Below are positions 8,142 through 9,059 of a stretch of 11,404 nt of DNA, piece by piece. The stretch's first letter is position 1. The number at the start of each line of letters is the position of its first letter. Source of the stretch: an uncultured bacterium. Lineage in GTDB: Bacteria; Cyanobacteriota; Vampirovibrionia; Gastranaerophilales; Gastranaerophilaceae. The DNA lies in the NCBI GenBank assembly GCA_905211505.1, contig CAJMAX010000037.1, forward strand, positions 1-11,404, read 5' to 3'. Made by a program: the position numbers and the translations under genes. The notes beneath the pieces were generated by a model, which saw only the letters and a program-made list of their open reading frames with translations, searched no databases and had not been told where the DNA came from.

Positions 8142-8218
8142 GGCGGGTGTCGCCAAGCGGTTAAGGCCTCGGATTGTGGTTCCGATATGCGTGGGTTCGA
8201 ATCCCATCACCCGCCCCA
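8142..8218 (+). tRNA. tRNA-His (anticodon GTG), with encoded CCA
   Basis: All four arms can be paired by eye. The acceptor 8143-8149 pairs with 8208-8214, the D-stem is GCC/GGC, the anticodon stem is TCGGA/TCCGA with loop TTGTGGT (GTG at 8176-8178), the variable loop has five bases, and the T-stem GTGGG/CCCAT encloses loop TTCGAAT. The histidine-specific extra G(-1) is encoded at 8142 and faces C73 at 8215, and CCA is encoded at 8216-8218. The last 17 bases plus three Ts recur exactly at 9040-9059, so this gene looks like the integration site of an element. Confidence 0.98.
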
Positions 8219-8221
8219 TTT
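8202..8221 (+). repeat. Left direct repeat (attL-like) in tRNA-His
   Basis: Sequence TCCCATCACCCGCCCCATTT. It spans part of the T arm, the 3' acceptor strand, CCA and three trailing Ts. Confidence 0.8.
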
Positions 8222-8357: not shown

Positions 8358-8612
8358 TTACCCCTTATGGGTTTCGAACTCAATTTTTTCTTTTAAGATT
8401 TTTTTATAATATGCAAATAAATATGTGTATCTTTGATATTCTTTTAGTTTTTCTTCATCATTATTTGCTAATATAATATCTTCAAACTCTTTATCAATTT
8501 GTTCTTTTAGGACTTCAATTAAAAGATGCAATTTTTCAGAATTGCTCATTGTATCTTCAATTATTATTTCCACAGGTATACCATCTATTACTGTTCGTTT
8601 AATATAATTCAT
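8358..8612 (-). CDS. Small acidic hypothetical protein (84 residues)
   Basis: I do not recognise this product. It begins MNYIKRTVIDGIPVEIIIED, which would form a beta hairpin, then a charged helical region (SEKLHLLIEVLKEQIDKEFEDII, DEEKLKEYQRYTYLFAYYKK, ILKEKIEFE) suited to a helical hairpin or dimer. There is no membrane segment or known motif. No Shine-Dalgarno sequence precedes the ATG at 8610-8612. A minus-strand TTGATT, 16 bp, TATATA arrangement ends within ten bases of the ATG, so the message would be nearly leaderless. The ATG at codon 22 is an alternative start. It sits between the tRNA-His direct repeats, divergent from the structured RNA, and is the element's only clear protein gene. 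Confidence 0.5.
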   Translation of the reverse strand: MNYIKRTVIDGIPVEIIIEDTMSNSEKLHLLIEVLKEQIDKEFEDIILANNDEEKLKEYQRYTYLFAYYKKILKEKIEFETHKG

Positions 8613-8668: not shown

Positions 8669-8893
8669 CACAGGGTAAAAATAGGCCTTTCTATAGGAAA
8701 CCAACCGACAACAATATTATAGACCTCGGGTTAGTTCCCGACTAGGAAGGGGGCAAGTATGAACGATTTCAATTTAAGTTTATTTTTAATTTATTTGATT
8801 TTGAACATATTAAAAACGGCTCTCATTCAAAAGAATAAGAACCGTTAGACCTCTACAAGGCTTATCGGTAGCTTAGGAAACTACCACCCTGTG
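8669..8893 (+). ncRNA. Structured RNA of unknown family, about 225 nt
   Basis: The ends pair perfectly over eight bases (CACAGGGT 8669-8676 with ACCCTGTG 8886-8893). Inside are hairpins at 8681-8694 (ATAGG/TCTAT), 8726-8741 (TCGGG/CCCGA), 8815-8846 (AACGG, TCT and ATTC pairing with GAAT, AGA and CCGTT, separated by two symmetrical C-A mismatches, AAAA loop) and 8867-8885 (GGTAG/CTACC, stacked on the closing stem). A stem AGGGG/CCTCT (8748-8752 with 8850-8854) encloses an AT-rich domain. The 3' end is followed by CTTTTATTAT, a weak terminator. TAGGAAAC occurs twice (8695, 8874) and TAGACCTC twice (8720, 8846). It does not fit tmRNA, RNase P, SRP, 6S or the common riboswitches. Strand is chosen from the G-U pairs and the T tract. 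Confidence 0.6.
8759..8848 (+). CDS. Hydrophobic 29-residue peptide ORF inside the structured RNA
   Basis: An ATG preceded by AGGAAGGGGG (8744-8753) opens a 29-codon frame starting MNDFNLSLFLIYLILNILK and ending in a basic KNKNR tail. One membrane helix and a charged end resemble type I toxin peptides. The frame fills the AT-rich domain between the GGGG and CCTC strands of the RNA, so its ribosome site would be paired in the folded molecule. AT-rich sequence gives hydrophobic codons easily, so chance is a real alternative. No antisense RNA gene is evident beyond the hairpin-rich opposite strand. Confidence 0.3.
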   Translation: MNDFNLSLFLIYLILNILKTALIQKNKNR

Positions 8894-9013
8894 CTTTTAT
8901 TATAAATCATATTTTTAAATTTTTCAATATTATAATTACAATATATTAACTTGATATTCTTTTATTGCGTAATCAAGCAAAATTGATTCTGTAGAAATAA
9001 AGGCTGGAAATAT

Positions 9014-9039: not shown

Positions 9040-9059
9040 TCCCATCACCCGCCCCATTT
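9040..9059 (+). repeat. Right direct repeat (attR-like), displaced copy of the tRNA-His 3' end
   Basis: Identical over 20 bases to 8202-8221. The bases before it (GTGCAACG) do not continue as tRNA, so it is a partial copy, not a broken second tRNA gene. Confidence 0.85.

What the first reader, a model, noticed from the sequence alone, without database searches (positions are those of the whole stretch)
8669..8893. Unrecognised 225-nt structured RNA with a perfect closing stem
An 8-bp stem joins both ends, and at least four internal hairpins and a long-range stem can be drawn. One hairpin has 12 pairs with two symmetrical C-A mismatches. The GC-rich paired blocks stand out in a very AT-rich surround. 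It matches no family that I can recall (tmRNA, RNase P, SRP, 6S, group I or II introns, common riboswitches). Carriage on a putative mini-element makes it a candidate selfish or regulatory RNA.
Basis: partly seen in the sequence, partly recalled or inferred. Interest (0 to 1): 0.8.

Follow-up and report, generated by a model that had tools for sequence, protein, structure and literature searches.

The report
Mobile type I toxin-antitoxin locus
The folded stretch looks like a tiny poison-and-antidote gene pair read from both DNA strands, a short membrane peptide and the small RNA that should silence it, carried on a mini mobile element in gut bacteria, where many copies each seem to have their own matching antidote sequence.

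Summary
The 225-nt structure is real, but it is not one unknown non-coding RNA. Both strands are used, as in a type I toxin-antitoxin locus. The + strand reads as an mRNA with a Shine-Dalgarno and a 29-codon hydrophobic ORF (8759-8848). I studied 120 full-length homologues from Gastranaerophilales genomes; an antisense covariance model matches 131 of 367 genomes of the order. Wobble pairs put the terminator and first hairpin on the antisense strand and, less firmly, one long-range stem on the mRNA strand. Two direct repeats, typically 8-11 nt, in the mRNA 5'UTR and the antisense RNA are among the most variable parts of the locus yet match within a copy (z 27). Predicted cognate pairing beats non-cognate pairing in 70 of 72 same-genome tests. 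The copy here lies on an 838-bp integrase-less element at tRNA-His. The nearest known design is Fst/par of pAD1, with mRNA folding resembling AapA/IsoA; no family was found for the peptide. Toxicity and expression are untested.

The parts
8202..8221 (+). left direct repeat = 3' end of tRNA-His (8143-8218) plus 3 nt
   Evidence: 20-nt exact repeat with 9040-9059; tRNA-His
9040..9059 (+). right direct repeat; a terminator and flank like those after tRNA-His in relatives follow it
   Evidence: uninserted arrangement in relatives L016, L010, L028
8222..9059 (.). 838-bp mini-element inserted at tRNA-His; no integrase gene
   Evidence: repeat spacing 838; ORF list
8358..8612 (-). 84-aa ORF of the element, unknown family
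   Evidence: no Pfam family above cut-off, no PHROG; relatives in the same place beside other copies
8669..8893 (+). inferred toxin mRNA (5' end about 8669-8671; 3' end not determined)
   Evidence: stretch between the closing arms is 221-235 nt in 95 copies; long-range stems covary
8669..8676 (+). 5' arm of closing stem (with 8886-8893), start region of the mRNA
8886..8893 (+). 3' arm of closing stem; its complement is the start region of the antisense RNA
8681..8692 (+). 5' segment that can pair with the 3'UTR (8858-8865) or with the Shine-Dalgarno (candidate anti-SD)
   Evidence: SD pairing predicted; long-range partner covaries
8720..8727 (+). variable direct repeat, 5'UTR copy (TAGACCTC)
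8745..8753 (+). Shine-Dalgarno GGAAGGGGG
   Evidence: sequence; SD-like motif in 114 of 116 copies with the ATG in place
8759..8848 (+). toxin ORF, 29 aa: MNDFNLSLFLIYLILNILKTALIQKNKNR
8846..8853 (+). variable direct repeat, 3' copy (TAGACCTC; overlaps the stop codon); its complement GAGGTCTA is the recognition segment of the antisense RNA
8899..8927 (-). antisense promoter TTGAAA-17-TATAAT
   Evidence: 11 of 12 matches; 11 of 12 in 97 of 101 copies
8810..8892 (-). inferred antisense antitoxin RNA, about 83 nt
   Evidence: promoter and terminator; covariance model R1
8867..8885 (-). antisense hairpin 1
   Evidence: covariation; wobbles favour - strand 61:15
   Evidence: wobbles 190:1 for the - strand

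Best explanation
This is a type I toxin-antitoxin locus of Gastranaerophilales bacteria, carried here on an 838-bp tRNA-His-targeted mini-element. (1) The + strand gives an mRNA of about 225 nt coding a 26-29-aa hydrophobic peptide, the presumed membrane toxin (sequence evidence; toxicity inferred). (2) A stronger promoter on the - strand makes an antisense RNA of about 83 nt: hairpin, unpaired recognition repeat, intrinsic terminator (sequence and covariation; transcription inferred). (3) The antisense RNA is complementary to the 3' part of the mRNA; its recognition repeat also matches a second site in the 5'UTR about 31-39 nt before the start codon. I infer that it pairs at one or both sites, disrupts the mRNA's 5'-3' pairing, frees the 5' segment to hide the Shine-Dalgarno and lets RNase act. 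(4) The repeat differs between copies, so each antitoxin should mainly silence its own toxin (predicted). (5) Loss of the element would stop synthesis of the antitoxin while toxin mRNA persists: addiction (inferred by analogy).
For: Peptide: 116 of 120 full-length copies have an ATG in place, 114 of these 116 behind an SD-like motif and 114 of the 116 with a 23-31-aa peptide; of six frames the + frame 0 has the lowest pN/pS (0.417), with stops in 1 of 105; mean best 15-aa hydropathy 2.81, n=105. Antisense: promoter 11/12 in 97 of 101 (mean 10.95, shuffled 7.33); terminator 14 pairs; both hairpins covary. Strand: internal wobbles 190:1 (terminator) and 61:15 (hairpin 1) for -, 58:13 (second long-range stem) for +. 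Repeats: mean shared length 8.40 against 4.51 +/- 0.14 in 500 re-pairings, z 27, n=106; same-genome 8.48 (n=56) against 4.20 (n=74); own antisense RNA is the better predicted partner in 70 of 72 ordered pairs from 26 genomes; repeats are among the most variable 8-nt windows. SD paired to the 5' segment with mean probability 0.29 in the full mRNA and 0.72 without the 3' part, rise in 76, fall in 3 of 95.
Against: No expression or toxicity data. Predicted SD accessibility does not rise on 3' trimming (0.21 full, 0.22 without 20 nt, 0.17 cut at the ORF end; falls in 43, rises in 10 of 95), so AapA-type activation is not supported. The mRNA promoter is weak (8.43 against 7.29 shuffled, n=98; 8 of 12 in the window) and no terminator for the mRNA was found near 8893 on +. 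Strand assignment of the long-range stems depends on how pairs are counted: a looser count gave 85 (+) to 100 (-) for the second stem and 60 to 204 for the closing stem, against 58:13 and 32:29 in the stricter one, 203:64 on MAFFT columns with 209 mismatches and 11:4 on A1, and 52:23 for the closing stem by columns. The 5'UTR hairpin leans to - (51:32). One - strand frame is also mostly open (stops in 4 of 105, pN/pS 0.616). In 2 of 72 same-genome pairs another copy's antisense RNA is predicted to bind better (L201, L212). Seven copies have a displaced start or altered ORF. Sequences are related, so z and counts overstate independence.
Confidence: 0.87

Rival explanations
1. An antisense-repressed small membrane protein that is not a toxin (for example a regulator of a membrane enzyme); the locus has type I architecture but no addiction role.
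For: Toxicity is untested; the same in-silico signals would appear.
Against: Accessory distribution (131 of 367 genomes), several copies in some genomes, tandem arrays and tRNA-side or phage-side locations suit an addiction module better than housekeeping; repeat diversification suggests insulation between copies.
Confidence: 0.12
2. A single long non-coding regulatory RNA of the mini-element, read from one strand; the small ORF is chance.
For: Long-range covarying stems span the full 225 nt; one - strand frame is also largely open.
Against: SD-like motif plus ATG in 114 of 120 copies, lowest pN/pS 0.417 in that frame, and wobbles of 190:1 for the - strand in one helix against 58:13 for the + strand in another (the latter depends on the counting method).
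Confidence: 0.03
3. An RNA-guided mobile element (bridge-RNA or omega-RNA type) in which the repeats are DNA guides.
For: Variable repeated segments, mobile context.
Against: The repeats are identical to each other and are explained by antisense-mRNA pairing; no transposase or nuclease among the element's ORFs; no Rfam match. What such RNAs look like is recalled, not tested.
Confidence: 0.02

Closest known systems
Fst/RNAII par locus of plasmid pAD1 (Fst/Ldr family), PMC7472228, passages read
   Same: mRNA of about 230 nt for a small hydrophobic peptide; short antisense RNA from a convergent promoter; direct repeats crossed by both transcripts in opposite directions; a 5' stem-loop hiding the SD; repeat divergence presumed to insulate co-resident loci; present on plasmids, phages and other mobile elements.
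   Different: No bidirectional terminator: the terminator hairpin pairs on the antisense strand (190:1) and long-range stems place the mRNA beyond it; no P-x-x-x-G motif in 116 peptides and no family match; Gastranaerophilales rather than Firmicutes; tandem arrays of diversified copies.
AapA/IsoA of Helicobacter pylori (aapA3/IsoA3), PMC6733600, passages read
   Same: 225-nt toxin mRNA with a 5'-3' long-distance interaction; SD-sequestering structures in the nascent mRNA; antisense RNA of 80 nt; 30-aa peptide; module-specific antitoxins.
   Different: Trimming of the 3' end does not expose the SD in my predictions; a duplicated recognition repeat links antisense RNA and 5'UTR; peptide not compared directly.
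MsoT1/MsoA1 of Microcystis aeruginosa, PMC12390103, outline, abstract and passages read
   Same: Candidate type I locus in Cyanobacteria; antisense RNA complementary to the 3' end of the coding region and the 3'UTR.
   Different: Toxin predicted with two membrane helices; the main text holds no mention of Melainabacteria; 'direct repeat' occurs once in it, in a passage I did not identify.

Membership tests
Type I toxin-antitoxin system | small hydrophobic peptide gene with ribosome-binding site, conserved as protein | tested here: met
Type I toxin-antitoxin system | antisense RNA with its own promoter and terminator, complementary to the toxin mRNA | tested here: met
   (sequence level; transcription not observed)
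Type I toxin-antitoxin system | peptide is toxic and the RNA neutralises it | not testable with these tools
   needs expression assays
Fst/RNAII (par) family | direct repeats crossed by both RNAs in opposite directions | tested here: met
Fst/RNAII (par) family | shared bidirectional terminator | tested here: not met
   terminator hairpin wobbles 190:1 for the - strand; terminator found there on - only
Fst/RNAII (par) family | Fst-type peptide (P-x-x-x-G motif) | tested here: not met
   motif in 0 of 116 peptides; no Pfam or NCBIfam family above cut-off; motif definition from PMC7472228
AapA/IsoA family | 5'-3' long-distance interaction of the mRNA | tested here: met
   stems covary; that they form in the mRNA is likely but count-dependent
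AapA/IsoA family | 3' trimming opens the SD | tested here: not met
   prediction only
AapA/IsoA family | AapA-like peptide | not tested
   no direct comparison made; no Pfam or NCBIfam family above cut-off
Known Rfam RNA family | covariance-model match | tested here: not met

The most novel reading that the evidence does not exclude
Gastranaerophilales carry a large, fast-diversifying family of mutually orthogonal type I toxin-antitoxin modules that spread as near-minimal selfish cassettes. Each module consists of an mRNA and an antisense RNA read from opposite strands of the same 225 bp, and both transcripts begin at the two ends of one inverted repeat. Specificity lies in a duplicated 8-11-nt key that changes in concert at both places, so that new copies are not silenced by resident antitoxins; tandem arrays and integrase-less tRNA-targeted mini-elements would be products of this specificity race.
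Probability: 0.45. Interest if true: 0.75.

Novelty: new variant of a known kind. Interest (0 to 1): 0.63.

Why it matters
PMC12390103 (2025) says that type I systems were known only from Proteobacteria, Firmicutes and Tenericutes and reports a first candidate in Cyanobacteria. The family described here sits in a gut lineage of the same wider phylum (non-photosynthetic, as I recall), is found in about a third of the sampled genomes of its order (131 of 367), and offers over a hundred natural variants (109 after thinning) in which peptide, antisense RNA and recognition key vary together. It gives a ready data set for how antisense RNAs gain new specificity without losing function, an example of strand assignment by wobble pairs, and a case of an addiction module on a very small mobile element.

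Tried and rejected
Non-coding RNA, riboswitch or ribozyme readings: no Rfam match, and helices split between the strands. Bridge/omega RNA and retron readings: considered when the direct repeats were seen; rejected because the repeats are explained by antisense pairing and the element has no such enzyme gene; retron features were not tested by a tool. A coding frame on the - strand (recurring K-I-K-K-I residues, seen by eye): it is the antisense of the ORF, has stops in 4 of 105 and pN/pS 0.616, and is broken by a stop in the window. Phage and plasmid records: only short matches with E>=0.3, and no match to a peptide query in phages. Viral contigs: 0 matches to four exact patterns, a weak test because only exact matches count. 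Activation by 3' trimming: not supported. Structure prediction of the peptide was not run.

Rows dropped: of 134 profile hits 14 partial ones were dropped, leaving 120; 116 distinct sequences, 109 after thinning; 106 with the start codon in the expected place, 105 with ATG, 95 with both mRNA ends recognised, 101 and 98 for the two promoters. A1 used 20 of the 31 sequences aligned; A2 used 45 of 87 thinned sequences. The same-genome energy test was first run on 15 of the multi-copy genomes (42 of 42); that list had left out genomes with poorly matching repeats, so I repeated it on all 26 (70 of 72, 2 identical pairs left out) and report the latter. In the covariance-model searches of many genomes only the best 10 candidates per genome were scored, with stricter filters; two candidates per genome.

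Full report
WHAT WAS CHECKED. The 225-nt stretch 8669-8893 has the perfect 8-bp closing stem and the hairpins described. It folds better than all 200 shuffles on both strands, and better on the - strand (-70.1 kcal/mol, z -5.42) than on the + strand (-62.1, z -4.90). No Rfam family matches (seven homologue loci). This was the first hint that the - strand is transcribed there.

WHERE IT IS. AccA relatives place the window in Gastranaerophilales (MAG titles). The stretch lies on an insert between two exact 20-bp copies of the tRNA-His 3' end, 838 bp apart. In relatives L016, L010 and L028 the tRNA-His is followed directly by a terminator and flank like those that come after the right-hand repeat in the window. 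The insert has no integrase. It holds the structured stretch and an 84-aa ORF of no known family, whose relatives (31-64% identity over part of it) sit in the same place beside other copies.

HOMOLOGUES. BLASTN found relatives in 104 of 383 genomes of the order at E<=1e-5; a few of these are short AT-rich matches of 27 nt (G006, G280, G349). I took the loci given there, 20 larger regions and 80 further places; a profile search of these gave 134 hits in 119 loci, 120 of them full length. A covariance model of the antisense part (R1) matches 131 of 367 genomes of the order, with up to 8 matches in a genome, and 74 of 386 in a phylum-wide sample. All 74 bear handles already met in the order searches; no handle first met in the phylum sample (G384 and up) is among them, though the number of such genomes is not shown.

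THE PLUS STRAND CODES. An ATG is in place in 116 of 120 copies, 114 of them behind an SD-like motif; a typical peptide is MDKFNISLLLIFLILYILKNGSYLNR. Of six frames over codons 2-18 of 105 sequences, the + frame has the lowest pN/pS (0.417) and 1 of 105 with a stop. Of 105 thinned peptides 80 have 26 aa and 19 have 29 aa; they are strongly hydrophobic. Five peptides reach no Pfam or NCBIfam cut-off, and the window peptide no PHROG. Seven copies have a displaced start or an altered ORF (L120, L168, L170, L186, L196, the second copy in L218, L221).

THE MINUS STRAND IS AN ANTISENSE RNA. A promoter with 11 of 12 consensus matches is found in 97 of 101 copies, and its -10 box ends 7 nt before the CAGGG of the closing repeat in 97 of 101 (mean score 10.95, shuffled 7.33); the mRNA promoter is weaker (8.43 against 7.29, n=98). 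The - strand terminator at 8846-8815 has 14 pairs and a T-rich tail; a run of 4 or more T follows the hairpin in 96 of 106 copies. Hairpin 1 and the terminator hairpin covary: 97.2% of cells paired, 90 double-change cells against 23.8 in shuffles.

WHICH STRAND EACH HELIX BELONGS TO. A wobble is a G-U on one strand and a C-A mismatch on the other. Wobbles flanked by Watson-Crick pairs in 106 copies favour the - strand for the terminator hairpin (190:1) and hairpin 1 (61:15), and the + strand for the second long-range stem (58:13); the closing stem is neutral (32:29) and the 5'UTR hairpin leans weakly to - (51:32), which I do not explain. For the terminator and hairpin 1 a looser count agrees (264:15 and 151:41), but for the long-range stems it does not (second stem 85 on + to 100 on -, closing stem 60 to 204). 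By columns the second stem gives 203:64 for + with many misaligned cells and 11:4 on A1, the closing stem 52:23 for +. So the antisense helices are firmly placed, the mRNA helices less so. In 20 sequences the two long-range stems together show 35 double-change cells against 10.8 in shuffles.

THE RECOGNITION REPEATS. Copies carry the same short word, typically 8-11 nt, twice: in the 5'UTR about 31-41 nt before the ATG, and at the end of the ORF, where its complement lies in the antisense RNA between hairpin 1 and the terminator. These are among the most variable 8-nt windows of the locus (entropy 1.30 and 1.27, against 0.43-0.58 for SD region, ORF and terminator; a 5'UTR hairpin arm reaches 1.26), yet the two copies agree: mean shared length 8.40 against 4.51 +/- 0.14 in 500 re-pairings (z 27, n=106; 49 different shared strings of 7 nt or more, some nested in each other). 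Agreement is poor in some copies (for example L097, L108, L142, L201, L204, L212, L214). Within single genomes cognate pairs share 8.48 nt (n=56) and non-cognate pairs 4.20 (n=74). Predicted duplexes of antisense segment and 5'UTR average -17.3 against -11.5 kcal/mol, and in 70 of 72 ordered same-genome pairs from 26 genomes the own antisense RNA binds better; the two exceptions are L201 and L212.

HOW IT PROBABLY WORKS. Shown at sequence level: a peptide ORF with SD, an antisense RNA with a strong promoter and terminator, complementarity at the 3' part and at the 5'UTR repeat, and copy-specific repeats. Predicted: the SD pairs with a 5' segment with mean probability 0.29 in the full mRNA but 0.72 when the 3' part is missing, as in a nascent or antisense-bound mRNA; the rise is seen in 76 and a fall in 3 of 95 copies. 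So antisense binding could free the 5' segment to hide the SD. Not supported: exposure of the SD by 3' trimming (0.21 full, 0.22 without the last 20 nt, 0.17 cut at the ORF end; falls in 43 and rises in 10 of 95). Inferred: toxicity, RNase involvement and post-segregational killing.

CONTEXT. 34 of 134 hits lie within 1 kb of a tRNA, all 34 on its 3' side, 22 at tRNA-His (some loci end near the hit). L127 has repeats of a tRNA-Thr tail at +140, +298 and +1142 around its copy. The copy in L141 lies between a phage integrase and, further on, a terminase small-subunit gene; copies in L136 and L143 lie within about 3 kb of baseplate-like or tail-fibre genes. L136, L137 and L138 hold tandem arrays of 5, 3 and 2 profile hits, 303-329 bp apart except for one gap of 679 bp in L136 that holds a diverged unit; their repeats differ except for the first two units of L136.

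COMPARISON. The nearest design is par of pAD1 (passages of PMC7472228): mRNA of about 230 nt, convergent antisense RNA, direct repeats crossed by both RNAs, repeat divergence presumed to insulate loci. It is not a member: the bidirectional terminator and the Fst peptide motif are not met. The mRNA resembles aapA3 (225 nt, long-distance interaction, nascent SD traps, module-specific antitoxins; passages of PMC6733600), but the 3'-trimming step is not supported. PMC12390103 reports a first candidate type I locus in Cyanobacteria; its main text does not mention Melainabacteria. A search for toxin-antitoxin with Gastranaerophilales gave 2 papers, judged from title and abstract start not to be about this; the listings I saw (15 of 199; 7 of 7; 10 of 32) show nothing matching this family. 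Papers outside that open library were not searched.

VERDICT. A family of type I toxin-antitoxin-like loci with par-like recognition repeats, for which I found no RNA or protein family; new variant of a known kind. Function is inferred from sequence alone.

Noticed in passing
window 8358-8612 (-): 84-aa ORF beside the locus on the mini-element; relatives at 31-64% identity over part of its length sit in the same position next to other copies (L098, L112-L114, L118, L119, L168, L048, L096), so it may be a second conserved gene of the element.
   Followed up: partly
L136 10640-11060 and about 11400-11500: The five-copy array also holds a diverged unit with a similar promoter but a different peptide (MQMDLLIYLFLDYLIQKYKKKVPDLELLELFIKS behind GGAAGGAGGTG) and a truncated unit (by eye): a likely sister subfamily.
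   Followed up: partly
L127 8472-9700: tRNA-Thr tail repeated at +140, +298 and +1142: tandem att-like sites that suggest stepwise accretion of small elements at one tRNA gene.
   Followed up: no
G187, G179, G064, G243: Seven or eight antisense-model matches in one genome; copy number varies widely between genomes of the order.
   Followed up: no
window 8669-8676 / 8886-8893: Both inferred transcripts begin in the arms of the same inverted repeat (ACAGGG...), so the closing stem is also the start region of both RNAs.
   Followed up: partly
L025 13530-16140: Two stretches similar to the window's tRNA-His downstream flank lie about 1 and 2.4 kb after tRNA-His, hinting at other small insertions at the same site.
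   Followed up: no
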